DNA of 57,515 bases, taken from NCBI GenBank assembly GCA_028872875.1, contig JAGWOC010000014.1, positions 1 through 57,515 of the forward strand, given 5' to 3'. The notes under the pieces are model-generated. The model had not been told where the DNA came from and searched no databases. It saw only the letters and a list, made by a program, of their open reading frames with translations. This document shows positions 1 through 42,114 of the stretch, piece by piece. This DNA comes from Chloroflexota bacterium. Its GTDB lineage: Bacteria; Chloroflexota; Dehalococcoidia; DSTF01; JACRBR01. Each line of letters starts with the position of its first letter. Within the stretch, counting starts at the first letter, position 1. Made by a program: the position numbers and the translations under genes.

Positions 1-1045
1 AGGTGATCTGCTCGCTGCCGCTGGGGCGCGTGTCGGCCTGCGTCGCGACGTTGCCCGCCGCGTCGTAGGTCAGCGTCAGGCTCTGGTCGGCCACCGTCGT
101 CGTGCCGGTCGCGATGCCGCTGACGCGCTGCCGGAAGTCGTAGGTGTAGGTGGTGGTCGCGCCGTTGCCGAGGCCGAGCGCGGCCGGGGTGCCGGCGGGC
201 GTCAGGGCGGCGCCGGCGATGATCGGCGAGCCATACGTGGCGGACGTGAGGCCGCTGATGGCGCCCGCCGTATAGGAGTACTTGACCACCTCGCCGTCCG
301 GGTAGGTGAGCTGGAGCAGCTCGCCGGCATCGTCGTAGGTCCGGGCGATGTCGTACGTCGCGGCGCTGCTGTAGGCGTCGGCGTTGAGCGTCCGGCGCGT
401 CAGGACCTCCTTGCCGCGCAGGTCGAAGCAGGACTGCCGGACGCCTGCGCCATCGCTCATCTGGACCTGGTGGCCGATGGCCGTCGGCCCGGCCGCGCAA
501 GGGCTGCCGGCGGGGTATGCGTCGTAGGTGTACTGGACCGCCGGCGTGCTGTCCGAGTAGGACTTCCCGAGCAGCCGGCCCAGCGCATCGTAGGTGAGCG
601 TGGTCGTGATGCCGCGGGCGTCCGTCTGCCGCGTCAGCTTGCCGGCGGCGTCGTAGGCGTAGGTCCAGTGTCCCATGTCCGGGTCCTGCATGCTGATCTT
701 GCGGCCCGCCAGGTCGTAGGTGATCGTCGTCTGGTTGCCCTTGGCATCGGTGACGAAGATCAGCCGGCCGAGGGCGTCGTACCGATACGCCGTGTCGTAC
801 GTGCTGGCCGGCGTGGTGCAGGTCGCGCCCGGCGCCGTCGCCAGCTGCTTGACGACGAGCATGCGCGCCGCCGGGTCGCGCACCTGCGTGGTGGCGTTGA
901 GGTTCCCGTCACAGTTGATGGTCCAGTTGATGGTCCAGTTGAAGGGCGTCAGGCCGTAGATCGTCTGCGTTGCGGCGGCCTGCGTGCCGTCGCCCGAGAG
1001 GAAGGCCGTGCACGTCACGTCGCCGAGCGCATCATACAGGGCCAT
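1..1045 (-). CDS. RHS/YD-repeat protein fragment, truncated at both ends
   Basis: The leftward frame is open from 1045 to the window edge and encodes RHS-type YD repeats: YRYDALGR near 780, TYDLAGRKI near 710, YAYDAAGKLTR near 655, TYDALGRLL near 590 and TYDAAGNV near 75. RHS proteins form large secreted or surface shells, often carrying toxins or mediating contact. The C-terminus lies beyond the window. At the 5' side an in-frame TGA lies 18 bases before the first ATG (1045), no Shine-Dalgarno is visible, and the sequence upstream is transposase. The gene has therefore lost its true N-terminus, signal peptide included, and is probably not expressed as such. A 12-bp tandem duplication near 915-945 gives WTINWTIN. 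Confidence 0.8.
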   Translation of the reverse strand, partial: MALYDALGDVTCTAFLSGDGTQAAATQTIYGLTPFNWTINWTINCDGNLNATTQVRDPAARMLVVKQLATAPGATCTTPASTYDTAYRYDALGRLIFVTDAKGNQTTITYDLAGRKISMQDPDMGHWTYAYDAAGKLTRQTDARGITTTLTYDALGRLLGKSYSDSTPAVQYTYDAYPAGSPCAAGPTAIGHQVQMSDGAGVRQSCFDLRGKEVLTRRTLNADAYSSAATYDIARTYDDAGELLQLTYPDGEVVKYSYTAGAISGLTSATYGSPIIAGAALTPAGTPAALGLGNGATTTYTYDFRQRVSGIATGTTTVADQSLTLTYDAAGNVATQADTRPSGSEQIT

Positions 1046-1421: not shown

Positions 1422-1463
1422 CTGTAAGGTTTGCGGGCCCTGGCGGTGGAACCATCAGGAGCG
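1422..1463 (+). promoter_or_regulatory. Candidate ECF-sigma promoter of the cyclase-sigma operon
   Basis: CTGTAAG (1422-1428), a 16-base spacer, then GGTGGA (1445-1450), followed by CAGGAGCG (1456-1463). The same module with identical internal spacing occurs at 4215-4256 before the CAP gene, and lies 72 versus 73 bases from the respective start codons. A -35/-10 pair with 16-base spacing fits ECF promoters. That the sigma factor encoded downstream reads it is inference. Confidence 0.5.
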
Positions 1464-1499
1464 GTCGAGGGCCCGCTCATCGACGGGGAGGGCACCGCG

Positions 1500-2381
1500 A
1501 TGCACATGCATCAGTTCACGGCAGCGGGGCCGGGGCGCATGGTCCTGCAGGGTGCGGGTTGGCTATCGAGCGCCATCAGAGGAGCGGCGGACGGGTCGCC
1601 GGCCGGGACCGCCCGAGACCAGCGGAGGACGCTAGGAAGCCGGGCGGTGGTGCGCGCGCACTCGTCCGACGGCAGCAAGCAACGAGGGACCGTCGTGCGG
1701 ACATGGTGTCGAGACGAGGCGGCGGGCGCGCCGCAGACCCCCGCGATCCGCGTCGTCCTCTTCACGGACATCGAAGGTTCGACGGCGCTGACCGAGCGGC
1801 TCGGCGACGCTGAGGCGCGCGGGCTCTTGCGGCTGCATGAGCGGATCGTGCGTGCGGAGCTGCGGGCCCACGGCGGCGCGGAGATCAAGACGCTGGGGGA
1901 CGGCTTCCTGGCGGCGTTCTTCTCCGCGACGCAGGCGCTGGCGTGCGCGGCGGGCATCCAGCGGGCGTTCGCGGCGTACAACTGGCGCGGGGCCGAACCG
2001 CTGCGCGTACGGATTGGCCTGAACGCGGGCGAGCCCATCGCGGAGGACGACGACCTGTTCGGAACGACGGTCATCGTCGCGGCGCGCGTGACGGCGCAAG
2101 CATGCGGCGGTGAGATCCTGGTCACCGACGTCGTGCGCCTGCTCGCCGCGGGCAAACGCTTCCGCTTCGCGCCCCGCGGCACGTCGGTGCTGCGCGGGTT
2201 CGAGGACGAGGTGAGCCTGCACGAGGTCGACTGGCGCGCCGCGCCGGACGACGGACCCGTCGGGACGCTGCCGCGCCGCGAGCTGCCGGCCATGCCCGCG
2301 ATGACGCGGCCGGGCGACCCGCTCGCCGCCGTAGCGGTCCTGGCCGCCGGCGTCACGGTCGCAGCCGGAGCCGCGATGTAG
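1500..2381 (+). CDS. Class III adenylate/guanylate cyclase family protein
   Basis: A 293-residue protein with a class III nucleotidyl cyclase domain at about 83-240. The first metal-binding Asp is in FTDIEGST (D90) and the second in LGDGF (D134), with K130 before it. The transition-state Asn of the 'VNxAAR' motif is replaced by Ile (VIVAAR, I192-R196), so catalytic efficiency or substrate is uncertain. The first 80 residues are unstructured-looking and the last 20 are hydrophobic (AAVAVLAAGVTVAAGAAM), possibly a membrane tail. ATG 1500 is chosen because GGGGAGGG lies 8 bases upstream; an in-frame TTG exists at 1431. The gene is 29 bp before the sigma factor gene and is probably cotranscribed, linking cyclic-nucleotide or cyclase-like signalling to that regulator. 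Confidence 0.85.
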   Translation: MHMHQFTAAGPGRMVLQGAGWLSSAIRGAADGSPAGTARDQRRTLGSRAVVRAHSSDGSKQRGTVVRTWCRDEAAGAPQTPAIRVVLFTDIEGSTALTERLGDAEARGLLRLHERIVRAELRAHGGAEIKTLGDGFLAAFFSATQALACAAGIQRAFAAYNWRGAEPLRVRIGLNAGEPIAEDDDLFGTTVIVAARVTAQACGGEILVTDVVRLLAAGKRFRFAPRGTSVLRGFEDEVSLHEVDWRAAPDDGPVGTLPRRELPAMPAMTRPGDPLAAVAVLAAGVTVAAGAAM

Positions 2382-2410: not shown

Positions 2411-4189
2411 ATGGATCCTGGCGAAACGATAGCCAACGACAACGAACTCGAGCGGCGCGCCGCGAGTGGCGAACGAGAGGCCTTTGCCGCGCTCTACGAG
2501 CGCTACGCCCGGCGCATCTACGACTTCCTGCTGCGCATGGTGCGCGACGACGATGAAGCCGCGGACCTCATGCAGGAGACGTTTGTGCGGGCGATGAAGG
2601 CGCTGTCCCCGGAGCGCGCGGGCGGCGCCCAGTTCTCGACCTGGATCTTCACCATCGCCCGCAACCTCGCCCTCACGCGGCTCGAGCGGCGGAAGCGCAC
2701 CGTGCCCCTCGGCGAGGAGGGTGAGGAAGACGGGACGCCCGCGTACCAGGCGGTGGACCAGACCCGGCTCGCCAACCCCGGCGAGGCGGTCGAGGCGGAG
2801 GAGTTGGCGAGCCTGGTGTGGCAGGCGGCGCAGGGCCTCGAAGAGAAGCAGTACTCGCTCCTCGACCTGCACGTCCGGCAGGGGCTGGACAGCGCCGAGA
2901 TCGCGCAGGTGCTCGGCGTCAGCAAGGGCAACGCCTACACGATGCTGAGCCGCCTGCGCGACGCGTTCGAGGGCGCGGTCGGCGCCCTCGTGATGCTCCA
3001 GCGGGGACGCCGGCGGTGTGTGGACCTCGACCGGCTGCTGCGGGAGCGCGGCGTGACGGCGTTCTCGCCGGTCGCGCGGAAGCTCATCGAGCGTCACGCG
3101 GTGGGCTGCTTCACCTGCACGGACCAGCGCCGCCAGCTCGTGTCCGCGACGGCCATCCTGCGCGCGCTGGCGCTGCTGCCGTTGCCGTTCGTCCTGAAGA
3201 GGCGCGTGGCAGAAGCCGCGTGGCAGTCATGGCGGACACAGCAGGTGGAGCAAGCCTCGCTGCAGGGCTCCGCCGGCACCGGCCCGGGGGTGCTGCCAGC
3301 GGGGCGCTGGCTGGGCCGCCCACTCGGGTTCGTCCGGCAGCTCGCTGTCGGCGCGAACCCGTGGATGACGGCGGCGGTCGGCGGCGTCATCGCCACCGTG
3401 CTCATCACCGGCGGCACGTGCATGCTGCTGCCCGCTGTCAGCGGGCAGGGCGGCGGGCCGGCGCCCTCTGGCAACGCCCGCGTCAACCAGGTCGCCGGTG
3501 AGGTCCACGCGCCCGTCACCGCCACCGCCGCCGCGCCGACGGTGCAGCCGTCGCCCGCGAGCACCGCGACCGCGCCCGCGCCCACCGTGGCGGCGACCGC
3601 CGTGCCGACCGAGCCGCCCGCTGTCGCGCCTTCGCCCACGCGCGCTGTGGCGCCCACGGCCCCACAGCCCAGACCCACGCTGCCACCGCCACCGGTGTGC
3701 GGCGCGTCGCCGGCGCCCGTGCTCGGGCCTGCATCGGAGGATCCGGCGTACGCCGCCACCCTGCGCGGCCTGAGCAACCAGTATCGCGCGGGCCGCGGCC
3801 GGCCAGCGTTCGTCGTCGACGCGCGCCTTACGACGGCCGCCTTCCAGTACGCCCGCTTCGTCGTCGAGACGGAGTGGTGGCTGCACCATCCGCCCGGCAT
3901 GACGTTCGACGGCACGTTCGTCCCCGGCATCCACATCGATGCCGCCTGCCACGACATGTACGACCGGGCCGTGGCCGACGGCTACCCGCCCGCCGTGATC
4001 GGCGAGAACGTCATGTGGGGGACGGCGGACCTGCCTGCATCGAGCATGTTCTCCATCGCCATGACCAGCGCCGACCACGAAGACCCGGCCGACGCGCGGT
4101 TCGCGGCCAGCGGCCTCTCGTGCTTCCGCCGCCTCAGCCCCTCGCCCGCCGAGATCGCCTGCGTGCAGGTCTTCGGCGGCGTCCCGTAA
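2411..4189 (+). CDS. ECF sigma factor fused to a membrane span and extracytoplasmic CAP domain
   Basis: A 592-residue protein. Residues 20-97 are sigma region 2 (LYERYARRIYDFLLRMV, ending FSTWIFTIARNLALTRLERR). Residues 140-195 are region 4 with the helix-turn-helix SAEIAQVLGVSKGNAYTMLS. A Cys-containing segment (CFTC, about 236-239) follows. A hydrophobic helix (about 317-342) precedes a 90-residue Pro/Thr/Ala linker, and the C-terminus (about 437-592) resembles a CAP/SCP domain with LTTAAFQYARF, GENVMWG, SADHED and a closing CVQVFG. ECF factors are normally about 200 residues and controlled by a separate anti-sigma factor. Here the sensor and tether appear built in, and no anti-sigma gene is adjacent. 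SD GAGGG lies 6 bases before ATG. How the sigma part reaches RNA polymerase (proteolysis or in situ) is unknown. Confidence 0.88.
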   Translation: MDPGETIANDNELERRAASGEREAFAALYERYARRIYDFLLRMVRDDDEAADLMQETFVRAMKALSPERAGGAQFSTWIFTIARNLALTRLERRKRTVPLGEEGEEDGTPAYQAVDQTRLANPGEAVEAEELASLVWQAAQGLEEKQYSLLDLHVRQGLDSAEIAQVLGVSKGNAYTMLSRLRDAFEGAVGALVMLQRGRRRCVDLDRLLRERGVTAFSPVARKLIERHAVGCFTCTDQRRQLVSATAILRALALLPLPFVLKRRVAEAAWQSWRTQQVEQASLQGSAGTGPGVLPAGRWLGRPLGFVRQLAVGANPWMTAAVGGVIATVLITGGTCMLLPAVSGQGGGPAPSGNARVNQVAGEVHAPVTATAAAPTVQPSPASTATAPAPTVAATAVPTEPPAVAPSPTRAVAPTAPQPRPTLPPPPVCGASPAPVLGPASEDPAYAATLRGLSNQYRAGRGRPAFVVDARLTTAAFQYARFVVETEWWLHHPPGMTFDGTFVPGIHIDAACHDMYDRAVADGYPPAVIGENVMWGTADLPASSMFSIAMTSADHEDPADARFAASGLSCFRRLSPSPAEIACVQVFGGVP

Positions 4190-4293: not shown

Positions 4294-4908
4294 ATGAACA
4301 CCCCCGGTTCCACCAGACGCATCATCCGCCCGGACTCGTCCGGGACTCCCGCCTCGCAGGCAGCACGCGAGCCCCGCCGTGGCGTGCGGCGTGCTCTCGC
4401 CCGTGTCGGCCTACGCGGCGACCCCGTCCGGAAGACGGCCGCGCTCGCGGCGCTGGTCGGCGCATGTCTCGCCGTACTGGCGTTCGTCGCCTGCACACCA
4501 CAGGTCTCGGCGGAGTTGCGGGCGACGGCGGGGGTCAACGCGATCCGCGTCGAGGCGGGCCTGCCGCCGCTGACGCCGGACTACCAGCTCGTCGCGATCG
4601 CCCGGGCGCGCAGCGCCGACATGGCGGCGAAGGGCTACTTCGGCCACAACCCGCCCGACGGCTGCAACTACGTCTGCCTGATGGACCGCAACGGCGTGCG
4701 CTACGCATACGCGGCGGAGAACATCGCCTGGAACGACTGGCCATGGGACCAGACCGCGGACGTCGCCGTGCGGATGTGGCACAACAGCCCGCCGCACCTG
4801 GCGAACATCCTCAACTGCCACTTCACCCGCTTCGGCACCGGCGTGGCGCGGGCGGCGGATGGGAAGATCTACTACACGATGGTGTTCGAGGGAGACCGGG
4901 CATGCTGA
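4294..4908 (+). CDS. Secreted or membrane-anchored CAP (SCP/PR1) domain protein
   Basis: A 204-residue protein. After about 50 basic residues comes a hydrophobic segment (TAALAALVGACLAVLAFVAC), either a signal anchor or a lipoprotein signal with a poor lipobox (FVAC). Residues about 80-204 form a CAP domain: VNAIRVEAGLPPL, ARARSADMAAKGYFGHNPP, AENIAWN, WHNSPPHLANIL and GTGVA. The conserved His-Glu-His set of the CAP cavity is present (GHNP, AENI, PPHL). CAP proteins bind lipids or small ligands or act in cell-wall processes; the ligand here cannot be told. SD GGGAGGG lies 7 bases before ATG. Position behind a shared promoter module suggests it is a target of the preceding sigma factor. Confidence 0.88.
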   Translation: MNTPGSTRRIIRPDSSGTPASQAAREPRRGVRRALARVGLRGDPVRKTAALAALVGACLAVLAFVACTPQVSAELRATAGVNAIRVEAGLPPLTPDYQLVAIARARSADMAAKGYFGHNPPDGCNYVCLMDRNGVRYAYAAENIAWNDWPWDQTADVAVRMWHNSPPHLANILNCHFTRFGTGVARAADGKIYYTMVFEGDRAC

Positions 4909-6280: not shown

Positions 6281-9200
6281 CTACCGCCGCCGTCTGAGGG
6301 CCACCACGCCCGCGAGGCCGCCGGCCAGCAGCAGCGCCGCCACGGCGAGGCTGAACGCCGCGCCGGTGCGCGCCGAGCCGCTGCCCGTGCCAGGCAGCCG
6401 GATGGGCCCCCGGGCCGCGGCGAGCACGGTGCTCACCGGCGTTGTCGTCGTTCCGGGCGTGGGCGATCGGGCGGGGGCTGTGGCAGTCGCTGTGGGCGTG
6501 GCCGTCGCGGCCGGGACGATGATCGCCGCCGCACCAGCGGTGGCGGTGGCCGTGGGGCTTGCCGTGGTCGTGCGCGTGGCGGTGGGCGACGGCGTGGCGG
6601 TCGCAGAGGGCGTGGCCGTGCGCGTGGCGGTGGGCGACGGCGTGGCGGTCGCGGTGGGCGTGGCCGTACGCGTGGCGGTCGGCGACGGCGTGGCGGTCGC
6701 GGCGGGCGCTGGCGTGCGCGTCGCCGCGGGCGAGGCCGTCGCCGTGTTGGTTGGGCTGGCGATCGCGGTCGGCGTCGTGGTCGCAGTAGCTGTCGGACTG
6801 GCGCTCGGCGTCGCGGTGGCGGTGGCCACCGCGGTCGATGTCGGGGTCGGGCTGGCGGTCGCCGTGGCAACCGCGGTCGCCGTCGCTGTCGACGTAGCGG
6901 TCGCGGTGCTCGTGGCGGTCGCGGCGGGCGACGGCGTGGGGGTCGGTGCGGTCGCACCCGAGCAGGTGCGGCTGTAGAAGGTGTCGACGCCCAGCCCGGG
7001 GAGCAGCTCCTGCCACAAGACGTGCAGCGCGCCGGCCTGCCCGCGGAGCACCGGGCCGTACACCCCATTGTCGTTGGGCTGCGCCGGCCGCACGAAGGTC
7101 GCGGCGCCGTCCGTGCTGACGCTCACCAGCAGGTTGCCGACGGCCACCGGGTGCCACGCGAGGAAGACGGACCCCCCGCTCACGATGACCCGCGGATCCC
7201 GGTGCCCGGAGCCCGCCGGGGCCAGCGGGGCGCCGAAGCTCGCGCCGCCGTCGTGGCTGGCGGCGACGAACAGCGAAGTCCCTGCCTGCCCCGTCCAGGC
7301 GGCGTACACGTCGGCGCCCGAGGCGGCGATCGACGCGGCGAACCCGCCATCTTCGCTGTTGAGCTTGACGCGGGGGCCGAAGCTCGCGCCCCCGTCGCTG
7401 CTCTTGCGCAGGGAGATGCCGCCAGGAGACAGCAGGCTCTCCCAGACCACGTACACGTCTCGCCCGGACACCGCCATCACCGGGTGTAGCGAATATGGAT
7501 CCCCTCCCAGGTCGATGGGCGCCGAGAACGTGGCGCCGCGGTCAGCGCTGCGCCGGAAGTACACGCGGTACTGACCGTTGTTGTTGTTGTCCCAGAGGAG
7601 GTACAGGTCATCGCCTGACGCCTGGAACGCGAAGGGGTTGTACGCTCCGTTGAATCCGGGCTGATCCGTCAGGCTCACAAGCGGGCCAAATGTGACTCCG
7701 GCATCCCCGCTCACCCGCACGTAGTTTTGCCTGGGGGATCCGGGGCCGCCATTGAATAGCGTGTACACAGTGTCGCCGGAGACCGCCACGCCGGTGCTGC
7801 CGAAATAATCCACGCCCGGCATGCCGGTGACCGTCGGCGGGCCAAACGTGGCGCCGAAGTCTCTGCTGACGGCGACGTACCCGTACCCAACAAATCGGTT
7901 GACCTCGTAGATCTGCTTCGTCCATGCGACGTACACGTTGGCGCCCTCAGCGGCCACCGACGCTACATTCGGCGCGCTGTCGAGCACGACCTTCGGCCCG
8001 AAGGTGACGCCGCCGTCGGCGCTGGCGCGGAACACCAGTCCCTGGGTCTCGCCCCATGCAGCGTAGACGTGGTCGCCGGCGATGGCGATCCGTTGCGGCG
8101 ATGCCGACCCGTGCGGCGCGTTGCTCAGGTTGACCGGCGTGGTGAGGCAGACGCCCGGCTGCGGGAGGGGCGGCGCCAGGGTTCGGTCGCGGAGGAAGAC
8201 GTCGGCCACGCCGTTCGTGTCGCCGGGCACGACGTTGGGCGCCCCCGAGGTGAAGGCGATGAAGCGCCCGTCGCCGCTGACGCCCGGCCTGGCGTCGCCG
8301 GGGGCGACCGCCGGGCTGCCGTCGTCGCCGACGCTGCCGCGTTCCGTTACGCTCGTGCCGAGGTCGTGGACGTACACGTAACCCGCGGGCGGCGCGCCGT
8401 CGCGGACGAGGGTCGCCGCCGACCAGAAGGCAACGGTACGGCCGTCGCCACTGATCGCCGGGACCCCGCTCGAGTTGTCGGTCTGGGCGCCGGAGGTGAA
8501 CACGCTGACACGCCGCGTCGCCGCGCCGCCCGGCTCGTCGAAGACGCCGTTGCCGTCGGCGTCGCGGTCGCGGACGAAGATGTCCCCCTGCCGGTTCGTG
8601 TCGCCCGCCACGAGGTTCGTCGCGGCCGAGGTGAACGCCACAGAGCGGCCGTCGGCGCTGATCGCCGGCTGGAAGCTGGAATTATCGCCCTGCGCCCCGG
8701 CGCCGCCGACGCTGACGCGCACCGTCACGCCGGTGCGCAGGTCGTACGCGAAGACGTCCTTCGCGCGGTTCGTGTCGCCAGCGACCAGGTTGGTCGCGTC
8801 CGATTCGAACGCCACGTAGCGTCCGTCCGCGCTGAGCACCGGGCTGTCGCTGTCCCCGTCCCCCCAGAGGCCCGCGGTGGATATGCTGGCGCTACGCGTC
8901 GTACCCGTGGAGCGGTCCCGTACGAAAATGTCCTGCATGCCGTTGACGTCGCCGGCCACCAGGTTCGTCGCCCTCGACCGGAACGTGACGAGCCGTCCGT
9001 CGCCGCTGAGCGACGGCGTGCAGCCGAATCCGTTTGCGGAGCCGCCGGCCGGGTCGACGTCCACCCGCTCGGTGACGCCGGTCGCCACCGTGTGCACGAA
9101 GATCCCGTCGGGCGAACAGAACGCCACGACGCGACCATCCGCGCTGATCGCGGGCGCGAACGACGGCCAGACCTTTTGCGAGCCATCGCTGTTGACGCTC

Positions 9201-12200
9201 ACGCGCACGGTCGTGCCCGCCTGCCGGTCGCGCAGGAAGATGTCCTGGTAGCCGTTCGTGTCGCCCGGGACCAGGTTGTCCGCCTCGGACGCAAACACGA
9301 CGTAGCGCCCGTCGGCGCTCATCGCCGGCACGCCGCTCGCCCGGTTCCCCTCGACGCCAGCGCTGGACACGCTGACGAGTGTCGTGACGCCCGACGAAGG
9401 GCGCGCGGTCGCGGTAGGCGTGGCGGTGGCCGTCGCGGTCGCGCTCGGCGTCGGCGTCGGCGTCGTGGTGCTGGTCGCCGTCGGCGTAGCGGTGGGTGGC
9501 GCCGCGGCCATTAGCGGGCGCGCAAGCTCGAGCTGCCGGCCCGCGCCGTCGGTCGCGCGGAGCTTGAGGGTGAAGGCGCCGGCGGCGTAGGCGTGGTCGA
9601 AGCTGGCGCCGGGCGCCAGCGTCTGCGGCGCTGTGCCGTCGCCGGGATCGAGCACGGCGGCCAGCGGCGCGCCGGCAGCGTCGCGCGAGCGGTTGGTGAG
9701 CCGGACGAGGTCGCCCGCTAGCGGGCTCGCCGGGAAGAGCGCGAGCGCCGGCACGGGCAGTGCGCCGGGCGCGAGCGCCTGCGGCGCCGCCAGCGGCGCC
9801 GGCGCCAGCGGCGCGGGAGACACAGACGAGGCCACCGCCGCCGGGCGCACGGCGATGTCCAGCGGGGCAATTCGCAGGGGCGGCGGCAGCTCCGTGGAGG
9901 CGGCAGCTTCACCCGCCGGCGGCGCGAGCGCAGAGGACGACGGGAACGCGCCGGGGAAGCCCTGTGCCGCCGACGGCACGGGCCGCTCGGGGGACCCGGA
10001 CACCGCCGCGACCGCCGCGACGGGCGGTACGGCCGCTCGGTCAGCCGCGAGCGGTGTGCCGGCGGGCGCCGCGTTGGCCGAAGCGGCGCCCGCCGGGAGC
10101 AGCGCCGGACAGTCGATGATGTCGCCGAAGCTCGTCGCCCAGAACCAGACGACGCCCTGCTGCCGGGCGATGCCGATGGCGCGCCAGCGCGGGTCGATCA
10201 TGTTCTCGTTGTGGCCCGCGAGCGACCCTCTCCAGCCGAAGATGACGCTCTTCGCGGTCTGGAAGTCGCGGGCCAGGTTCTCGCCCACCGCCGCCGACGC
10301 CGGGTATCCCGCGTCCCTGGCCCGCTTGCCAGGCGTGCTCCCATCCGACCCGGTGTGGTCGAGGAAGTCCTTTGTGGCCATGTCGGCGACGTGCCGGCGC
10401 GCGGCCCTCGTCAGCGACGGCGAGACGGACAGCGGCGCGGCGCCGTTCTGGGCGCGATAGATGTTGATCAGCCCAAGGAACGCCTGCTCCTCGCTGTCCA
10501 GGGACACGGTGGGGTCGCACGTGAGCGTCGGCGCGGGCGGCGGTGGCGGCGGCGGCGGCCCGGGGAGGATCGTGACGGTCGCGCTGTCGGAAGCCGAGGC
10601 GCCGTCCTTGTCGGTGACGGTCAGCGTGAACAGATAGCTCCCGACCGGCAGGCCGCCGATGTCGAAGGTGCCCGTCGCGGGGGTGGACAGCGTCCCCTGG
10701 ATGGGCGCGACGCCCGGGATCGTGGTCGTCAGCGTGTAGTCCAGCGCCTTCTTATCTTCGGTCCCGGGGTCTGTGGCGCGGTACGGCACCTTGACCGGCT
10801 TGCTGGCTTCGGCGCTGGCATCGTCGATCTGGACCTCCGGCGGGAGGTTCCTCACAACGACGGGCTTGGTGATGCTGTTCGTCGCGCCGTCGGCGTCGGT
10901 CACCGTGAGCGTCACCGTGAACGTCCCGTTGTCGGCGAACGTCAGCGCCGTGTCGGATTCGGTCCTCGTCCTGCCGTCACTGAAGTCCCAGCGCCACGAC
11001 ACGATGTTGTTCTCGTCATCGGTCGAACGGTCACGGAAGAAGACCATCCGGCCCTCGCCGGGAGATGCGGGCGCGAACGAGAAGTCCGCCTTCGGTGGAT
11101 GGTTCACCGAACAGTCCGGCAGCGTCAGCGTGAGCGGCGGCGCGTTGCCGTCGGTGATCGCCGCGGCGAAGGCGTACTGGCGGCGGATGAGGCCAGGGCC
11201 GACGGGCATGGGGCGGTCGCCGGCGGCGTAGGTCAGCTTGCGCGTCAGGTCATCCACGCCGGGCGGGAAATACGGGGAGGGCGTCGCCGCCCGGTAGCCA
11301 AGGCTCGTCGTCAGGTCCCTTTCGAATGTGCCGCAGAACGCATACGGCGCGAGCGTGCCGTCGACGTTGCGCCGGAAGAAGACCGGGCGCGAGGCATCCG
11401 CCGCGTAGCGGAGCGCCGAGCCGTCTCCGCGCGGGACGAGCAGGAGGTCGCTCATCGTGTCCGCCAGCTCCACCGGCTTCTCGGTGCCGCTGATGAGCCC
11501 GGTGCTCAACGCGTGCTGGTACGGCAGCTCGGCGACCGCGCCGAGTCCGTCCAGGCGCACGCCATCGGCGCTCTCCTCCAGCCGGACCGCCGGCGGCAGA
11601 CCGTAGTTCTGGTAGTGCTTGACGTCACCGGCCAAGACCTGCCAGATGCTCGCCTTGCTCCCTGTCCGTACGTTGGTACCGTCCGGATTGCTGAGGGTGA
11701 AGGCGGCCTTCGACCGGTTCGTGCTCTGCAGCACCTCTTCGCTGAGGAAGAAACGTGCGCCGCCGCCGCTCAAGGTGCCCGACCGCTTCAGCCCCGACGA
11801 GGGCGCGTCCAGCTCCAGCCGGGACTGGTCAATGCAGTACTCGACCACCCCGGCGACGGCGCAGTCCGGCATGGTCGGCGGCCGGGCGGCGGGCCAGCGG
11901 CTGCTTCCCTCCTGGAACCACAGCAGGGTGGTCTGCTGCCACAGGTAGGTGACCCTCACGGGCGGCACCACGCGCACCGTCACGTCGCGCTTCGCCTGCC
12001 GGCCCGGCGTCAGCTCCACGGTCGCCGTCACCTTGTAGTCCTGCACCAGCGTGCCGGCGACGAGCCCGGTCGCGACGCGGCCGCTGGCGTCCGTGCCGCC
12101 GGAGGCGACGGTGAGCGACGCGTGCGCACCGCCGCCGGGCGCGACGGAGAAGGCGACGTGCTTGCCGGCCGCCGGCGCGCCGCCACACTCCCTGACAGTC

Positions 12201-15052
12201 GCCGTGATCTTCGAGCGGCTGGTCCCATCCGGGACAAGGGTGGCCGGCCTGGCCGTGAGCGACAGGTTCGAGCAGAGGTCGACGCGCTGGTCGTCGCCGG
12301 AGGGTAGATTGCTCCAGCGCACTGGCGTCGAGGCCAGCAGGCTGCCGTCCAGCGCCGTCGCCTCCGCCGTCACCTCCAGGTCCGGCCCCACGGGCACGGT
12401 GACGACCATGAAATGGTCGGCCAGGTCCGCCGGCGGGAGGCCCAGGGTGCGGGCTGGCAGCAGCGCCCCGGTGTCGAGCCGCCGCACCTTGACCTGCACC
12501 TCGGTCGCGCCCGCCGTGAAGAAGTCGTCGGCGTGGATCTCGAGGTCGGCCGACTCCAGGAGCCCCGAGAGGTCTGCGGCCGTCCATCCCTCCGTGAGAG
12601 CGGGGTCGGCCGGCCACTGGCTCTTCAGCACGCCAAGATCGGTCATGCGGGTGCTCTCGGCGCGCGTCGCGGCGGGCGACCCATCGGCCTTCAGGGGCAT
12701 CCAGGCCTCGGCGAAGCGGTCGATCTTGCCGTCGCCGTTGAAGTCGAAGCGGGGGAACGTGTCCTCGGGTGTCGGGCACTTCGCGTTGACCGGGTCGTAG
12801 ACGCAGCCGTCGAAGTTCAGGTCCTTCTTCGGGTGGCCGGCGAGGCCAAGGTCGTTGAGGGTGATCGCGGCGATACCTGGACACCCCGGCATCGCCGCTG
12901 CCTCGCACGTCTGGAGCCAGGCGTCGCGGAAGCGGCGGAAGTCGCGCATGTCGACCTTGCCGTCGGGGTCGGTGCGATACGCCTCCGTCCGCCCGTACGT
13001 CGTCGCGAAGCCCGGGCGCGCGCTCTGCTGCGTGTCGGCGACGTTGGAGGCGGCCGTACGGTCCAGCTTCACCCGGCGGTTGCCGTCGGCGGTCATGTCG
13101 TTGACGTCGACCAGCGCTTTCGCCGCGCCGGGCACGCCGAGCAGCGAGTCGAACACATCCAGGCGGGGGGCGGCGCCGCCGGTCGTGTCGCGCGCGGCGC
13201 CTTCGAGCAGCCGCTGGCGGACCTGCAGCGCCGTCAGGTTCGGCTCGAACGCCAGCAGGTAGCCAATAGCGGCAACCACCGCAGGTGCCGCCATCGACGT
13301 GCCGTCCTTGAGCCCGTACTGGTTACCGCGCACCGTGCTGTAGATGTCCACGCCGGGCGCCGAGATGTCGCCCGTGGACTCCGAGAAGGTCGCGAGCGCG
13401 AGGGCGTTGTCGTGCGCCTCGACGACGACGGGCGGCGCCAGCATCGCGTCCGTCCAGTGGCGCGCCGCCCACCCGAACCCGGACGCGAGACCCGCGTCGA
13501 TGACAATCCCGGCCCCGGGGCAGCCGTTGTTGTCGGGGTCGGACGCGGTTAGCTCCACCGGTGAGATGACGCCGTCCCCATTGACGTCGATGGCCGCCGG
13601 GCAGAAGTCATTGCTCTCGTTCCCCGCCGCCTGCACGATGAGCACCTCGTTGGCGGCGGCGCGCTCAGCGATCGTCCGGTAGAGTCGTCCGGTGTGGAGC
13701 CAGCCTGTCAGCCATCCGTCCTCGTTGTTCCACGTGCACCAGTCGGTCGAGCCCGGCAGCCCGTCGTCGGCGGCGCCCGGGCCGCAGGCCTTCCGCGGGT
13801 GCGCCGTCCACCATCTGCTGAGCGTGACTGCGGGTCCCGCGCTGTAGTTGATGACGCGCAGCCCCGGGAGGTCGACGGCCTTCCTGTCCAGGACAAGGTT
13901 GAACACGTCCGGCGACTCCAGCGGGTTCAGCGGGAATGCCATCATCCGCGCGAGCGGGTTGCCGCCGCTGACGCCGAGCGAGCGCGTCGGGCTCGAGCCG
14001 TCGTTGTCGTAGTCCGCGCCGATGATCCCGGCGACGTGGTTTCCGTGCGCGTCCACCTTGTTCGCCGTGCACGCGCCGCTGGCGTTGCAGACCTGGCCGA
14101 TGACCATGGCGCTGAGGTCATCGTGCTTCTCAAACCCGTCCACCTCGATGATGCCGGTGGTCACCTGGGCGGCACGCAGCCGTGCCGCCTCCAGCAGGTT
14201 CCACGCCGGCGGGAAGCGGGCGGCCTCGAGGTTCCAGTTCATCCCGGCACCCGTCAGCGTGCCGCCCGGCGTCGGCACCACGTCCCAGCGCCAGCCCGCG
14301 AACGCGGGGGTAGCTGTGGTGTCAGGGACGCGCGGCACGGCGCGGTTCGACGCCTGGAGGTCCGGCGCGGCGAAACGCACGGCCGCGCTGGCGCGTAGTT
14401 GCGCGACGGCCGCGTCCACCACGGAGAAGTCCGCGCTGTCCCCGGCGGTTACCATCAGCAGCCCGAAGTCCGGGATGCCGCCTACCACCGGCGTCCCCGC
14501 CGCCTGCAGCAACGCGTTCGCCTGCGCGACCGTGGTCTGCGGCAGGAACCCCAGCAGGATCTTCGTGCGCGACGCGCGCACCGCGAGCCGCGGGTGCACC
14601 GAGATATCGGCAGGGTCTACGGGGGGTAGACCGCCGTGCGGGATGTGTGCGTTCGCCGGGTCGCCCGCCGGCCCGGCGAGGCCGCTCACGGCCCCCTGCA
14701 GCGTGCCCTTCAGCGCCGGCGTCCTGGCCGAGGCATAGGTGTGTGCGCCCGGCACCGAGAGCGCGATGCTGAAGCCGGCGCCGGGCTGCAGGTCGCCCGA
14801 GTCGAAGAGCCCGCTGTCCGCGGTGACGGTCTGCACGACGCTCGACCGGTTCGTCCAGTGCACGCCCTGGCCCGGGAGGACGCTGACGGACGCCGGCACG
14901 AACCCCGCTTCGGTGATGTCGATGGCCAGGTCTATAGCAACCGCGTTCGGAGAGGAGAGGCGCGAGGCGCGGCCACCCGAAACCAGCGACGCCGCCAGGG
15001 CCACCGCGACCAGGCACGCAGCCACCGGACGGACGCGGCGCGCTGCAGCCAT
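6281..15052 (-). CDS. Giant multidomain subtilase with CAP, PKD, beta-propeller and LPGTG anchor
   Basis: A 2923-residue secreted protein. Order: signal peptide (1-30); cupredoxin-like domain (about 45-130) without obvious copper ligands; S8 subtilase (about 265-640) with Asp305 (EVDGF), His339 (HGNHVAG) and Ser586 (GTSMAAP), plus AAGNES for the oxyanion Asn; EF-hand/dockerin-like segments (DFNGDGKID); Ig/invasin-like repeats; a PKD domain from about 1320; a CAP domain (about 1518-1646: NIYRAQNG, GENLARDF, GHNENMI); Pro/Ala linker; six or more TolB-like propeller blades (about 1880-2295, repeating GDTNG..DIFLRDR); BNR/sialidase-like repeats (about 2300-2700, repeating VYAAW and SADGGVTFGP); a Thr/Pro repeat linker; and LPGTG (2886-2890), a hydrophobic helix and RRRR. 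All three catalytic residues are present. Likely cell-wall-anchored by a sortase encoded elsewhere. Substrate unknown. Confidence 0.9.
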   Translation of the reverse strand: MAAARRVRPVAACLVAVALAASLVSGGRASRLSSPNAVAIDLAIDITEAGFVPASVSVLPGQGVHWTNRSSVVQTVTADSGLFDSGDLQPGAGFSIALSVPGAHTYASARTPALKGTLQGAVSGLAGPAGDPANAHIPHGGLPPVDPADISVHPRLAVRASRTKILLGFLPQTTVAQANALLQAAGTPVVGGIPDFGLLMVTAGDSADFSVVDAAVAQLRASAAVRFAAPDLQASNRAVPRVPDTTATPAFAGWRWDVVPTPGGTLTGAGMNWNLEAARFPPAWNLLEAARLRAAQVTTGIIEVDGFEKHDDLSAMVIGQVCNASGACTANKVDAHGNHVAGIIGADYDNDGSSPTRSLGVSGGNPLARMMAFPLNPLESPDVFNLVLDRKAVDLPGLRVINYSAGPAVTLSRWWTAHPRKACGPGAADDGLPGSTDWCTWNNEDGWLTGWLHTGRLYRTIAERAAANEVLIVQAAGNESNDFCPAAIDVNGDGVISPVELTASDPDNNGCPGAGIVIDAGLASGFGWAARHWTDAMLAPPVVVEAHDNALALATFSESTGDISAPGVDIYSTVRGNQYGLKDGTSMAAPAVVAAIGYLLAFEPNLTALQVRQRLLEGAARDTTGGAAPRLDVFDSLLGVPGAAKALVDVNDMTADGNRRVKLDRTAASNVADTQQSARPGFATTYGRTEAYRTDPDGKVDMRDFRRFRDAWLQTCEAAAMPGCPGIAAITLNDLGLAGHPKKDLNFDGCVYDPVNAKCPTPEDTFPRFDFNGDGKIDRFAEAWMPLKADGSPAATRAESTRMTDLGVLKSQWPADPALTEGWTAADLSGLLESADLEIHADDFFTAGATEVQVKVRRLDTGALLPARTLGLPPADLADHFMVVTVPVGPDLEVTAEATALDGSLLASTPVRWSNLPSGDDQRVDLCSNLSLTARPATLVPDGTSRSKITATVRECGGAPAAGKHVAFSVAPGGGAHASLTVASGGTDASGRVATGLVAGTLVQDYKVTATVELTPGRQAKRDVTVRVVPPVRVTYLWQQTTLLWFQEGSSRWPAARPPTMPDCAVAGVVEYCIDQSRLELDAPSSGLKRSGTLSGGGARFFLSEEVLQSTNRSKAAFTLSNPDGTNVRTGSKASIWQVLAGDVKHYQNYGLPPAVRLEESADGVRLDGLGAVAELPYQHALSTGLISGTEKPVELADTMSDLLLVPRGDGSALRYAADASRPVFFRRNVDGTLAPYAFCGTFERDLTTSLGYRAATPSPYFPPGVDDLTRKLTYAAGDRPMPVGPGLIRRQYAFAAAITDGNAPPLTLTLPDCSVNHPPKADFSFAPASPGEGRMVFFRDRSTDDENNIVSWRWDFSDGRTRTESDTALTFADNGTFTVTLTVTDADGATNSITKPVVVRNLPPEVQIDDASAEASKPVKVPYRATDPGTEDKKALDYTLTTTIPGVAPIQGTLSTPATGTFDIGGLPVGSYLFTLTVTDKDGASASDSATVTILPGPPPPPPPPAPTLTCDPTVSLDSEEQAFLGLINIYRAQNGAAPLSVSPSLTRAARRHVADMATKDFLDHTGSDGSTPGKRARDAGYPASAAVGENLARDFQTAKSVIFGWRGSLAGHNENMIDPRWRAIGIARQQGVVWFWATSFGDIIDCPALLPAGAASANAAPAGTPLAADRAAVPPVAAVAAVSGSPERPVPSAAQGFPGAFPSSSALAPPAGEAAASTELPPPLRIAPLDIAVRPAAVASSVSPAPLAPAPLAAPQALAPGALPVPALALFPASPLAGDLVRLTNRSRDAAGAPLAAVLDPGDGTAPQTLAPGASFDHAYAAGAFTLKLRATDGAGRQLELARPLMAAAPPTATPTATSTTTPTPTPSATATATATPTATARPSSGVTTLVSVSSAGVEGNRASGVPAMSADGRYVVFASEADNLVPGDTNGYQDIFLRDRQAGTTVRVSVNSDGSQKVWPSFAPAISADGRVVAFCSPDGIFVHTVATGVTERVDVDPAGGSANGFGCTPSLSGDGRLVTFRSRATNLVAGDVNGMQDIFVRDRSTGTTRSASISTAGLWGDGDSDSPVLSADGRYVAFESDATNLVAGDTNRAKDVFAYDLRTGVTVRVSVGGAGAQGDNSSFQPAISADGRSVAFTSAATNLVAGDTNRQGDIFVRDRDADGNGVFDEPGGAATRRVSVFTSGAQTDNSSGVPAISGDGRTVAFWSAATLVRDGAPPAGYVYVHDLGTSVTERGSVGDDGSPAVAPGDARPGVSGDGRFIAFTSGAPNVVPGDTNGVADVFLRDRTLAPPLPQPGVCLTTPVNLSNAPHGSASPQRIAIAGDHVYAAWGETQGLVFRASADGGVTFGPKVVLDSAPNVASVAAEGANVYVAWTKQIYEVNRFVGYGYVAVSRDFGATFGPPTVTGMPGVDYFGSTGVAVSGDTVYTLFNGGPGSPRQNYVRVSGDAGVTFGPLVSLTDQPGFNGAYNPFAFQASGDDLYLLWDNNNNGQYRVYFRRSADRGATFSAPIDLGGDPYSLHPVMAVSGRDVYVVWESLLSPGGISLRKSSDGGASFGPRVKLNSEDGGFAASIAASGADVYAAWTGQAGTSLFVAASHDGGASFGAPLAPAGSGHRDPRVIVSGGSVFLAWHPVAVGNLLVSVSTDGAATFVRPAQPNDNGVYGPVLRGQAGALHVLWQELLPGLGVDTFYSRTCSGATAPTPTPSPAATATSTATATSTATATAVATATASPTPTSTAVATATATPSASPTATATTTPTAIASPTNTATASPAATRTPAPAATATPSPTATRTATPTATATPSPTATRTATPSATATPSPTATRTTTASPTATATAGAAAIIVPAATATPTATATAPARSPTPGTTTTPVSTVLAAARGPIRLPGTGSGSARTGAAFSLAVAALLLAGGLAGVVALRRRR
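6555..6725. repeat. 48-bp tandem repeat coding the Thr/Pro stalk
   Basis: The unit around GCGTGGCGGTGGGCGACGGC recurs with an exact 48-bp period (anchor points 6571, 6619 and 6667), about 3.5 copies with few mismatches. On the leftward strand it encodes a 16-residue Ala/Thr/Pro/Ser/Arg repeat in the linker before the LPGTG signal. Such minisatellites change copy number easily, so stalk length may vary among strains. Confidence 0.75.
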
Positions 15053-16452: not shown

Positions 16453-17655
16453 CTACGGGGTCGGGCTCGGTACCGGCGTCGAGGTCGCTGCCGGCGTCGG
16501 CGTCGGTGCCATCTTGTCCGTCTGGTGACAGGAGATGCACACCCCGCGGTTGTCGTAGAACAACAGCGCGCTGTCGTTTGCCGGGGCCACGCCCTGGGCG
16601 AATCCCGTCGCCGCGCTGCTGCTGCCGTGCGCGTAGTGGCACGTCAGGCAGCTAAACGCGTCGTACTTGACCGTGCCCGCCGTCCCTGGCGTCGTCCCTT
16701 CGGCGGCGAAGCGTAGCGGCTGCTGCGGCGAGCCGCCGTAGGTCCGTTCCACGGCGTGGCGGTAACGCGCCACGTTGCCCTTCCCGTCAAGCGCGTCCTG
16801 CGTGCCCGGGTAGACGTAGTGGGTGGCGTCCGTCGACGGGGCCGCCCCGGAACCGCTCAGCGTCAGGTACGACTTGTGACACGTCGCGCAGAAGGCGTTC
16901 ATCCCCTTCGTCGTATCGATCTGCGTCGTCGGTGTTCCACCTACGAGCACGACCGAGATTCCCGACGTGAACTTCATCTTGCACTTCGTGCCGACGCAGT
17001 CAGACGCCGGGTTGAAGCTGTAGTCGAAGTTGTCATCGACGGTTGCGACGACCTGGCTGTTCATCCAGTCGAGCAGGTCGGGATTGTCCGGGACCCAGCG
17101 GTGCTTCGACGCGTTCGCGGGGCCGTACGGGTAGCCGTTCGAGGCATCCTTCAGGATGCGGTAGTTCGTGCTCCCGTGCGGGTTGTGGCAACTCGTGCAT
17201 TCGAGCGTGCCCTGCACGCCGACGCCCAGGTCACCGACCGGAATGTTGTCGCCATTCTGGCTTCCCCACGCCGTACCGGCCCCGCTTGCAGGCGTGCCGC
17301 TCACCGGCATGCCCGCCACGATGTGCGAGGACGTCACCGGCTTGTTGTTCGCCTGCTCGAAGCCGCCACCGTTCAGGGGCAGGCCGCTGCCGGTCTGGAA
17401 GCCGTGCACCACGTCGGTGGAAACGCTCCCGGCGTGGCACGTCGTGCAGAGGGCATAGACGTTCGTCTCCTTCAGCAGGTCGGTGCCCACGGCCGTGTGC
17501 GCCCTGTGACATCCCGCGCACGCCGCTGTGGTCAGCGTGTAGTTGCCGTGCGGCCCGTTGTTCGCCGACGCTGGCCCGGCCCTGGTGGCCAGGCCCACGC
17601 CGGCGAGCAGCGCCGCCGCGAGCACCATCCCCGCCAGCAATTTCATTGGTCTCAA
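16453..17655 (-). CDS. Six-haem c-type cytochrome
   Basis: A 400-residue exported protein with signal peptide MKLLAGMVLAAALLAG...ASA and six CXXCH sites: CAGCH, CTTCH, CTSCH, CATCH, CLTCH and CISCH. Two are followed by the NPHG/AHG pattern of the doubled-CXXCH family. The C-terminus is a short Thr/Pro tail. Start: a textbook Shine-Dalgarno (AAAGGAGGTGATC) lies 8 bases from TTG 17655 but 17 bases from the next ATG, so TTG is chosen, giving MRPMKLL. The upstream frame extension to 17754 is rejected because it would bury this SD. It follows the NHL gene by 86 bp. Role: periplasmic or surface electron transfer; substrate not deducible. Confidence 0.88.
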   Translation of the reverse strand: MRPMKLLAGMVLAAALLAGVGLATRAGPASANNGPHGNYTLTTAACAGCHRAHTAVGTDLLKETNVYALCTTCHAGSVSTDVVHGFQTGSGLPLNGGGFEQANNKPVTSSHIVAGMPVSGTPASGAGTAWGSQNGDNIPVGDLGVGVQGTLECTSCHNPHGSTNYRILKDASNGYPYGPANASKHRWVPDNPDLLDWMNSQVVATVDDNFDYSFNPASDCVGTKCKMKFTSGISVVLVGGTPTTQIDTTKGMNAFCATCHKSYLTLSGSGAAPSTDATHYVYPGTQDALDGKGNVARYRHAVERTYGGSPQQPLRFAAEGTTPGTAGTVKYDAFSCLTCHYAHGSSSAATGFAQGVAPANDSALLFYDNRGVCISCHQTDKMAPTPTPAATSTPVPSPTP

Positions 17656-17741
17656 TGTGATCACCTCCTTTCTGTTCCAGGATCGATCGCGGTCCGGACG
17701 GGCAACGGTGGCCCGTCCCGTGTCATTAACCGGCGCGCCGC

Positions 17742-18749
17742 TCATGGCGTCCATATGTCGATGCGGCCGTTTTCGCGATTGGCGATATAGATGGCGCTGG
17801 CCGAAACGGCTATGCCTGCCGGATACCGGAGCTCACCACGGCCGAAACCGAGGGTGCCAAACTCGCCGAGGAAGATTGGTGTGTCGCCGCGCACATCGAA
17901 CGCGAGCACGCGATGATTCGTGACGTCCGTGACGTAGAGCCGGCCGTTGCGGTAGGCCAGGCCACCCGGCAGGCTCACGCCGTCGGTGCCCTCCGCCTTC
18001 AGGCGGAAGAGGAAGGCGCCGGCCGAGGAGAAGACCTTGACACCGGTGATGTCGCCGACCCAGATGCGCCCTTTGCCATCAACGGCGAGATGGCCGGGGA
18101 ACATCAGGTCGCCCGGCGCATCTCCCTTCTGGCCGAAGGCCAGGACGATCGTCCCGTCCGGCTTGAGCACGAGGACCCGGTGGCGAACGAGCTGGGGCGT
18201 GTCCACCGTCTCGCTCACGAACACGAGCCCGCCGTCATCGACGGCCAGCCCGAGTGGCGCCCAGTGACCCAGGCCCGCCGGGCGCAGGACGTCGCGGTAG
18301 GTGCCGTCCGCGTTGAAGGCGAGCACCTGCCCCAGCCTGCGGTCGACGACGTACACCGTCCCATCGGGCGCGACGGCGATGCTCACGGGCTGGCGGTCGG
18401 TGGCGGTCGTGTGCGGCGGCGCCGCTTCCGTCAAGGGCTTACCGCTGGCATCGAAGATCGCCACGGCATACGCGCCTGCGCCCTCCGCGACGTACACGCG
18501 CTTGCCATCGGGGCCCAAGGCAACGTCCAGCGGCCGCGGGATCCCAGAGACGAGGGTGCGCTGAAACGTCGGTCTACTGGTGGCGCCCGTGAGCGCGCCG
18601 GGCAATTCGGCGCGCGGCGCCCGCCTCTCGCGGATAAGCAACGTGAACACGCCGAGCGCCGCAAGGAACAGCAGGATCAGCAGCGGCACGATGATCCTGA
18701 GCTTCTTGCGCGTACCGCCGGGGCGCCCGGGCTGGTCTGCGTAGATCAT
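17742..18749 (-). CDS. Membrane-anchored NHL-repeat beta-propeller protein
   Basis: A 335-residue protein: a basic N-terminus, one transmembrane helix (about 18-40, IIVPLLILLFLAALGVFTLLI), then a six-bladed NHL propeller (about 65-335) with repeating segments such as PLDVALGPDGKRVYVAEGAG, ISIAVAPDG-type turns, GHLAVDGKGRIWVGD and PAGIAVSASAIYIAN. NHL propellers act as protein-binding platforms and are common beside multihaem cytochromes in Chloroflexota and delta-proteobacteria. Its ATG overlaps the stop of the TPR gene (ATGA), so the two are translationally coupled. Probably a scaffold for the cytochromes encoded downstream. Confidence 0.85.
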   Translation of the reverse strand: MIYADQPGRPGGTRKKLRIIVPLLILLFLAALGVFTLLIRERRAPRAELPGALTGATSRPTFQRTLVSGIPRPLDVALGPDGKRVYVAEGAGAYAVAIFDASGKPLTEAAPPHTTATDRQPVSIAVAPDGTVYVVDRRLGQVLAFNADGTYRDVLRPAGLGHWAPLGLAVDDGGLVFVSETVDTPQLVRHRVLVLKPDGTIVLAFGQKGDAPGDLMFPGHLAVDGKGRIWVGDITGVKVFSSAGAFLFRLKAEGTDGVSLPGGLAYRNGRLYVTDVTNHRVLAFDVRGDTPIFLGEFGTLGFGRGELRYPAGIAVSASAIYIANRENGRIDIWTP

Positions 18750-19678: not shown

Positions 19679-19922
19679 GACTCCTCCTCGAGCGAATCTG
19701 CTGGCATCATGCCGCGCCCGAGGAGACGCGGGTCAGTATCCGGCGTCAGGTGTTGGGCACAGGCGGCGCGATATGCGCGCGTCAATATGTGAAAAACGGT
19801 ACAGATGGCCCGCCGATCGGGGATGGGTGCCTGTTGGTTCCCCGGGCCGGGCAGTGTTCCATGGTCAGTGGCCGCATGCATCTTCGATGCGGCAAGACGC
19901 CGGAGGAGGTGCGGGACCCTCA
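19679..19922. other. Divergent intergenic region, TPR operon and sensor kinase
   Basis: A 244-bp gap between divergent genes. It must hold both promoters, but no convincing -35/-10 pair could be chosen. It contains an AT-richer stretch (TCAATATGTGAAAAACGG, near 19779-19796). GGAGGAGGTG ahead of 19923 is the kinase SD. A site for the NarL-type regulator encoded next door would logically sit here. Confidence 0.4.
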
Positions 19923-22374: not shown

Positions 22375-22566
22375 CGCCGGCGCCGTGGCGGGGCTGTGCC
22401 GCGCGATACACCGCGGCCGCGGCGCGGCGCCCGCGGCCCCTACCCTGCTTGATCGAAGGCCACGGCCGGGATCTACCGGGGCGCCCGTGTCAACCGGCGG
22501 GGATCCGGCCAGAATGGCGGATGGGCATGCGCCGCCACGGAGGGCGGCGTGCCCGAGGGGACTGGT

Positions 22567-24530: not shown

Positions 24531-24629
24531 GCCGGGGCCGCCGTGGGCCCCTGCGCGATCCTCGCTGGAGCGGACCGCGCGGGGCGTGGCGATGCTCGAC
24601 GCCTGTGTGGACGCCGGCTTGGGAGTGCT

Positions 24630-25883: not shown

Positions 25884-25910
25884 CGTCCCGCACGTCCCGT
25901 CGTATTGCAT

Positions 25911-27839: not shown

Positions 27840-27856
27840 GAGCTTGAGGAGCGCGC

Positions 27857-42034: not shown

Positions 42035-42114
42035 GCGGCAGCGCGGCGGCACTGCGGTTCCCGCATCGGGCCGCGGCGTCCGGCCGGCACCCGTTGGTGT
42101 ACGATGGCGGCAAG

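What the first reader, a model, noticed from the sequence alone, without database searches (positions are those of the whole stretch)
2411..4189. One-protein ECF sigma factor with membrane span and extracytoplasmic CAP domain
Sigma regions 2 and 4, a transmembrane helix, a long Pro/Thr linker and a CAP/SCP-like domain are in one open frame. ECF factors are usually short and held by a separate anti-sigma factor. Here the extracellular sensor seems covalently joined to the sigma factor, and no anti-sigma gene is next to it. This would be a single-component outside-to-transcription switch, released either by proteolysis or by acting at the membrane. ECF factors with C-terminal extensions are known as a class; a CAP sensor on one is what deserves attention.
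Basis: partly seen in the sequence, partly recalled or inferred. Interest (0 to 1): 0.78.

Follow-up and report, generated by a model that had tools for sequence, protein, structure and literature searches.

The report
One-chain sigma factor with CAP ectodomain
A Dehalococcoidia bacterium encodes a gene-switching sigma factor, a built-in zinc-type inhibitor domain, a membrane anchor and an outside CAP domain in one protein; the one-chain design is already known from other bacteria, but a CAP domain as its outside part was found in no other of about 120 relatives.

Summary
The 592-aa frame at 2411-4189 is real and reads as one coding gene throughout. Sigma regions 2 and 4, one membrane helix, a Pro/Ala/Thr linker and a C-terminal CAP domain are all present. 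CAP is below Pfam's cut-off, but an independent CAP profile and a fold comparison support it.

Between sigma-4 and the membrane lies a C-x25-H-x3-C-x2-C segment, with the helix layout of a zinc-type class I anti-sigma domain. C203, H229, C233 and C236 are invariant in 57 of 57 aligned relatives, 22 of which hit Pfam zf-HC2. So the anti-sigma factor is not absent: it is fused into the chain.

The protein belongs to a large family of one-chain sigma/anti-sigma/membrane/ectodomain proteins in Chloroflexota and Actinomycetota (about 120 members examined). The same architecture is published for ECF52 (SCO4117, with a carbohydrate-binding module) and is proposed for ECF48 and ECF53. In this family the ectodomain varies (BACON, Ig-like, cadherin-like or bare Pro/Thr tail); only this member carries CAP.

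Best reading: an autoinhibited membrane-tethered sigma factor, released by proteolysis after an event at the CAP domain. That mechanism is inferred, not shown. Verdict: new variant of a known kind.

The parts
2411..4189 (+). whole gene, 592 aa: sigma-2, sigma-4, anti-sigma-like zinc segment, membrane helix, linker, CAP
   Evidence: open frame, third-position G+C constant
2492..2701 (+). sigma region 2, aa 28-97
   Evidence: Pfam Sigma70_r2 E 3.1e-17; PDB profile hits to AlgU, RpoE, SigW
2816..2959 (+). sigma region 4, aa 136-183
   Evidence: Pfam Sigma70_r4_2 E 3.4e-7
3017..3268 (+). fused class I anti-sigma-like zinc segment, aa 203-286; ligands C203, H229, C233, C236
   Evidence: four residues invariant in 57/57 members, zf-HC2 hit in 22/57; four-helix layout in the model
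3374..3430 (+). transmembrane helix, aa 322-340
   Evidence: hydropathy 1.96 over 19 residues; helix 317-334 in the model; basic residues on the sigma side
3431..3745 (+). Pro/Ala/Thr-rich extracytoplasmic linker, aa 341-445
   Evidence: composition; Pro/Thr/Ser-rich tail at the same place in relatives
3755..4186 (+). CAP (SCP/PR-1) domain, aa 449-592; conserved H492, E532 (GEN), H556
   Evidence: independent profile E 8e-8, alignment, fold
1431..2381 (+). upstream class III adenylate/guanylate cyclase domain protein, 29 bp before the sigma gene; possible operon partner
   Evidence: Pfam Guanylate_cyc E 9e-17; spacing
4294..4908 (+). downstream second CAP protein with hydrophobic N-terminal segment, same strand, about 105 bp after the sigma gene
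   Evidence: Pfam CAP E 5e-18; sequence

Best explanation
A membrane-tethered, self-inhibited ECF sigma factor. Inside the cell, sigma-2 and sigma-4 are followed directly by a zinc-type class I anti-sigma-like domain in the same chain, which holds the sigma factor off RNA polymerase. One membrane helix and a flexible linker carry a CAP domain outside. An event at the CAP domain (binding of a lipid, a peptide or cell-wall fragment, or a metal; or its own cleavage) leads to cleavage outside, then intramembrane cleavage and loss of the anti-sigma part, which frees the sigma factor. Shown here: the domain order, the conserved zinc ligands, the membrane helix, the CAP fold and the family. Inferred: zinc binding, self-inhibition, topology, proteolytic release, and the CAP domain as the sensor. 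The ligand is unknown.
For: Invariant C203/H229/C233/C236 across 57 aligned members and Hx3Cx2C in 73 of 73 named loci. Helices 204-212, 220-232, 234-243 and 260-286 match the published class I anti-sigma layout, in which Hx3Cx2C spans helices 2 and 3 (PMC7406223). A single membrane helix follows in 71 of 73 loci. The ectodomain is interchangeable while the cytoplasmic part is conserved, as expected for a sensor module. ECF52 SCO4117 has the same order of parts, and its truncated sigma part retains activity (PMC5826349). IutY, a sigma/anti-sigma fusion, is released by Prc and RseP (PMC8999054). The genome encodes a strong M50 site-2 protease candidate, C126:2073-3359, E 1e-52.
Against: No zinc, binding or cleavage data exist. 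M50 proteases were found in all 14 control genomes, so their presence tells little. The model of aa 1-350 has pTM 0.49, so the docking of the anti-sigma part on sigma is not predicted reliably. No ECF-type promoter motif shared by the family was found upstream, so neither the regulon nor autoregulation is supported. The CAP domain is divergent and found in one genome only, so it could also be a decaying or non-sensory domain.
Confidence: 0.6

Rival explanations
1. The protein acts while still in the membrane: an event at the CAP domain changes the zinc anti-sigma part so that sigma-2 and sigma-4 open and recruit RNA polymerase to the membrane, without cleavage.
For: Nothing in the sequence marks a cleavage site; the linker alone would allow it. 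Conformational release is known for soluble zinc anti-sigma factors (PMC8999054).
Against: Nearest studied relatives in design (SCO4117, IutY) are explained by release of the sigma part (PMC5826349, PMC8999054). A long flexible linker of about 105 residues is a poor lever for passing a conformational change through one helix.
Confidence: 0.15
2. The CAP domain does not sense anything: it anchors the protein in the cell wall or shields the linker from proteases, and the real input is redox or zinc status at the cytoplasmic CHCC site.
For: The zinc site is invariant while the ectodomain is variable and in several relatives only a Pro/Thr tail without any domain. Zinc anti-sigma domains can be redox sensors (PMC7406223).
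Against: Most relatives keep a folded ectodomain (BACON, Ig-like, cadherin-like). PMC7406223 argues that the zinc site of membrane-bound anti-sigma factors is often structural.
Confidence: 0.15
3. The CAP domain was joined by accident (a fusion of the sigma gene with a neighbouring CAP gene) and the fusion has no selected function, or it is an assembly error in this MAG.
For: Two further CAP domains lie within 7 kb; the closest relative by sequence, in G008, is a decayed copy.
Against: Third-position G+C stays high across the whole frame; key CAP residues H492, E532, H556 are kept; the linker continues smoothly; the joined CAP is not a near copy of the neighbouring ones (17-31% identity).
Confidence: 0.1

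Closest known systems
ECF52 group, SCO4117 of Streptomyces coelicolor (PMC5826349)
   Same: One chain with ECF sigma domain, zinc finger, membrane helix, Pro-rich linker and an extracytoplasmic ligand-binding module; proposed release by proteolysis.
   Different: SCO4117 carries a carbohydrate-binding module (smart00776), not CAP. ECF52 is described as exclusive to Actinobacteria; this one is in Dehalococcoidia. Sequence membership could not be tested, as SCO4117 itself was not available.
ECF48 and ECF53 groups (PMC8999054, PMC10766802)
   Same: C-terminal extension with zinc-finger anti-sigma-like part and one or two membrane helices.
   Different: Ectodomains reported for ECF53 are glycosidase or carbohydrate-binding; actinobacterial; not compared by sequence here.
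IutY of Pseudomonas putida (ECF243; PMC8999054)
   Same: Sigma and membrane anti-sigma factor fused; shown to be released by Prc and RseP.
   Different: Iron-starvation cell-surface signalling with an outer-membrane receptor; no CAP domain is described.
Sigma/anti-sigma/BACON or Ig-like one-chain proteins of Tepidiforma, Actinophytocola, Nocardioides and Aeromicrobium (this work)
   Same: Homologous over sigma and zinc part (about 35-53% identity), same membrane helix and linker; the nearest clade on the tree is the Tepidiforma-like one.
   Different: C-terminal BACON, Ig-like, cadherin-like or bare Pro/Thr tail in place of CAP.
CAP/SCP/PR-1 superfamily (PF00188; BB0689 4d53, 4ifa, SAV1118 4h0a, GAPR-1 5vhg)
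   Same: Fold and conserved H/E/H.
   Different: The listed proteins are not part of a transcription factor; this CAP has an insert of about 16 residues after the first histidine and scores below Pfam's cut-off.

Membership tests
ECF sigma factor (sigma70 family with only regions 2 and 4) | Sigma-2 and sigma-4, no region 3 | tested here: met
   (TIGR02937 E 6e-26, above cut-off)
Class I anti-sigma domain, zinc type (fused) | Hx3Cx2C spanning helix 2 and helix 3 of a four-helix bundle | tested here: met
   H229, C233, C236 invariant; predicted helices 220-232 and 234-243; definition from PMC7406223
Class I anti-sigma domain, zinc type (fused) | Match to the zf-HC2 profile | tested here: inconclusive
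   22 of 57 members match, this protein itself does not
Class I anti-sigma domain, zinc type (fused) | Binds and inhibits sigma-2/sigma-4 | not testable with these tools
   needs protein work; relative placement of domains is uncertain in the model (pTM 0.49)
ECF52 | Sigma, zinc finger, membrane helix, Pro-rich extension in one chain | tested here: met
ECF52 | Carbohydrate-binding module at the C-terminus | tested here: not met
   CAP instead
ECF52 | Actinobacterial host | tested here: not met
   relatives and sister loci are Dehalococcoidia/Chloroflexota
ECF52 | Groups with SCO4117 in sequence | not tested
   SCO4117 sequence not held; an NPCBM search in 101 actinobacterial genomes gave no sigma fusion among the 10 loci fetched
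CAP/SCP superfamily | CAP fold | tested here: met
   top PDB matches all CAP/SCP
CAP/SCP superfamily | Pfam PF00188 above cut-off | tested here: not met
   16.9 bits against 21.1; an independent profile finds it at E 8e-8
CAP/SCP superfamily | Cavity His/Glu residues | tested here: met
   H492, E532 and H556 are invariant in the alignment; a fourth residue was not assigned

The most novel reading that the evidence does not exclude
A CAP (PR-1/SCP) domain serves as the extracytoplasmic sensor of a one-chain sigma/anti-sigma switch, acquired by swapping it for the Ig/BACON ectodomain of a Tepidiforma-like relative. This would be the first CAP domain known to us to feed directly into transcription in bacteria, possibly sensing a lipid or the neighbouring surface CAP and subtilase proteins.
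Probability: 0.4. Interest if true: 0.62.

Novelty: new variant of a known kind. Interest (0 to 1): 0.45.

Why it matters
One-chain sigma/anti-sigma fusions are known mainly as actinobacterial curiosities with one characterised case. The survey shows them as a large family in Dehalococcoidia too, with one conserved cytoplasmic switch and exchangeable ectodomains. That makes a direct test possible: swap ectodomains and see whether the input changes. A CAP ectodomain adds an input for a fold whose ligands in bacteria are poorly known.

Tried and rejected
A plain sigma factor with a sensor and no anti-sigma part: rejected, the CHCC segment is invariant in the family. Frame artefact joining two genes: no sign in third-position G+C. 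A conserved CAP-gene neighbour as partner: CAP genes lie within 5 kb in only 2 of 73 named loci, about what 3-4 CAP genes per genome would give, so not claimed. Autoregulated ECF promoter (GGAAC-N-CGTC types) upstream of 72 members: no more than in shuffles. ECF52 test through NPCBM-bearing actinobacterial proteins: the loci fetched were not sigma fusions. Viral contigs for CAP relatives: none. A pattern scan of GTDB genomes with the single protein found nothing, while the alignment scan found 73 loci. Phylum-wide searches with the full protein failed on the machine. Paper searches for a CAP-sigma or CAP/anti-sigma combination gave none in the held library. The careful tree did not finish; only the quick tree is used.

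Full report
Observation. The frame 2411-4189 (+) is open for 592 codons. Third-position G+C is 0.86-0.97 in all overlapping 100-codon blocks, so the N- and C-terminal parts are coded alike. Pfam finds sigma-2 and sigma-4 with strong scores and CAP only weakly, E 0.012. The CAP call was tested three ways. (i) A CAP profile built from proteins found here with this protein left out (45 CAP matches) hits aa 449-574 at E 8e-8. (ii) CAP proteins of relatives that are clear members of PF00188 match it at E 6e-9 to 2e-7, and H492, E532 and H556 are invariant in the alignment. (iii) A structure model from five sequences (pLDDT 79, pTM 0.75) matches first 4d53, 4ifa, 4h0a and 5vhg, all CAP/SCP proteins. 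The CAP domain is real and divergent.

Between sigma-4 and the membrane helix the sequence is C203-x25-H229-x3-C233-x2-C236, followed by a Leu-Pro-x-Pro stretch and a further helix. An alignment of 57 full-length relatives keeps all four residues in every row, and 22 of the 57 hit Pfam zf-HC2 on their own. The model of aa 1-350 (50 sequences, pLDDT 77) gives helices 204-212, 220-232, 234-243 and 260-286 before the membrane helix 317-334. This is the layout defined for zinc-type class I anti-sigma domains, whose Hx3Cx2C spans helices 2 and 3 (PMC7406223). The absence of an anti-sigma gene next door is therefore explained: it is in the chain. That it inhibits the sigma factor is inference.

Family. 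A scan of GTDB genomes with the sigma-plus-zinc alignment returned 73 named loci: Dehalococcoidia, Tepidiforma, other Chloroflexota, Actinophytocola, Nocardioides, Aeromicrobium and Acidimicrobiia. All 73 have Hx3Cx2C and 71 have a membrane helix after it, followed by a Pro/Thr/Ser-rich stretch. A search of 393 genomes of the window's class gave roughly 60 fusion-type matches, mostly in the window's order and in one further family. The genome itself has two more members, C124:28645-30012 and C24:41447-42613. The C-terminal parts differ: BACON_2 in 19 of 57, Ig-like or cadherin-like in others, bare Pro/Thr tails in many. An independent CAP profile finds no CAP in 92 other members, and among 50 further loci only the window's own gene.

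Tree. In a quick maximum-likelihood tree of 128 rows (the careful search did not finish) this protein joins L098/L175 (SH-aLRT 93), within a Tepidiforma-like clade of Chloroflexota (SH-aLRT 94) whose other members mostly carry ectodomains of about 300 residues. It does not join the members from its own family. The simplest reading is that the sigma/anti-sigma part came from that lineage, by transfer or old duplication, and that the ectodomain was exchanged for CAP. The closest sequence of all, in G008, is broken by stops and frame changes and its C-terminus is lost.

Neighbourhood. A class III cyclase domain gene ends 29 bp upstream and a second CAP protein starts about 105 bp downstream, both on the same strand. 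Converging on them is a 2,923-aa surface protein with subtilase, PKD, CAP and beta-propeller parts and a C-terminal LPGTG-hydrophobic-basic tail. Three CAP domains within 8 kb, in a genome where PF00188 finds four besides the divergent one studied here, is unlikely to be chance and suggests a functional link. But CAP neighbours are not conserved beside the other family members, so this stays a lead.

Mechanism. Best supported: a membrane-held, self-inhibited sigma factor released by proteolysis after an event at the ectodomain. The basis is analogy with SCO4117, whose truncated sigma part retains activity (PMC5826349), and with IutY, released by Prc and RseP (PMC8999054), plus the conserved zinc part and exchangeable ectodomains found here. 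An RseP-like protease gene exists, but such genes were found in every control genome. The CAP ligand is open; eukaryotic CAP proteins bind sterols and lipids (abstracts and titles of PMC4921858 and PMC5893428).

Known or new. The architecture is known: ECF52 has it with a carbohydrate-binding module, ECF48 and ECF53 are proposed to be alike. Two features stated for ECF52 (carbohydrate module, actinobacterial host) are not met, and sequence membership could not be tested, so it is not filed as ECF52. The CAP ectodomain and the extent of the family in Dehalococcoidia were not found in the literature held here, which does not include most subscription journals. Verdict: new variant of a known kind.

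Noticed in passing
window 6281-15052 (-): 2,923-aa surface protein: subtilase, PKD, CAP, PD40/BNR propeller parts, C-terminal LPGTG plus hydrophobic and basic tail (sortase-like anchor).
   Followed up: partly
window 1431-2381 (+) and 42001-43485 (+); G000:C124:25262-25618: Only four class III cyclase domains in the genome; one lies 29 bp upstream of this sigma gene and one about 3 kb from another sigma fusion (C124). The one at 42-43.5 kb follows an alpha/beta-hydrolase-like part (LipJ-like). Not seen beside the fusions of other genomes checked.
   Followed up: partly
L038 8640-9680 (G008:C2): Closest relative of the sigma part (about 60-72% identity in pieces) is a decayed pseudogene broken by stops and frame changes, without a recognisable CAP.
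   Followed up: yes
L228 603-2405 and L229 3-1115 (Actinophytocola xanthii): Two more, distant one-chain sigma/Hx3Cx2C proteins with hydrophobic stretches after the zinc part, in the same genome as a nearer member: several separate groups share the design.
   Followed up: partly
L223 3956-5266 (Thermomicrobium roseum plasmid NC_011961.1, TRD_RS13910, WP_012642865.1): Family member in a cultured organism, annotated only as 'RNA polymerase sigma factor'; a possible laboratory model.
   Followed up: partly
G003:C44, G006:C8, G013:C115, G015:C69, G017:C51 and others: In many genomes of the order a CAP gene lies 4-8 kb from an ordinary short ECF sigma gene (searches compared), which looks like a conserved locus.
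   Followed up: no
window 1-1045 (-): RHS-repeat protein cut by the start of the contig.
   Followed up: no
window 16453-31555: Multihaem CXXCH cytochrome gene at 16453-17754 (Pfam) with an NHL-repeat gene beside it; frames further on look like a response regulator and cytochrome c biogenesis genes (read by eye, not searched).
   Followed up: no
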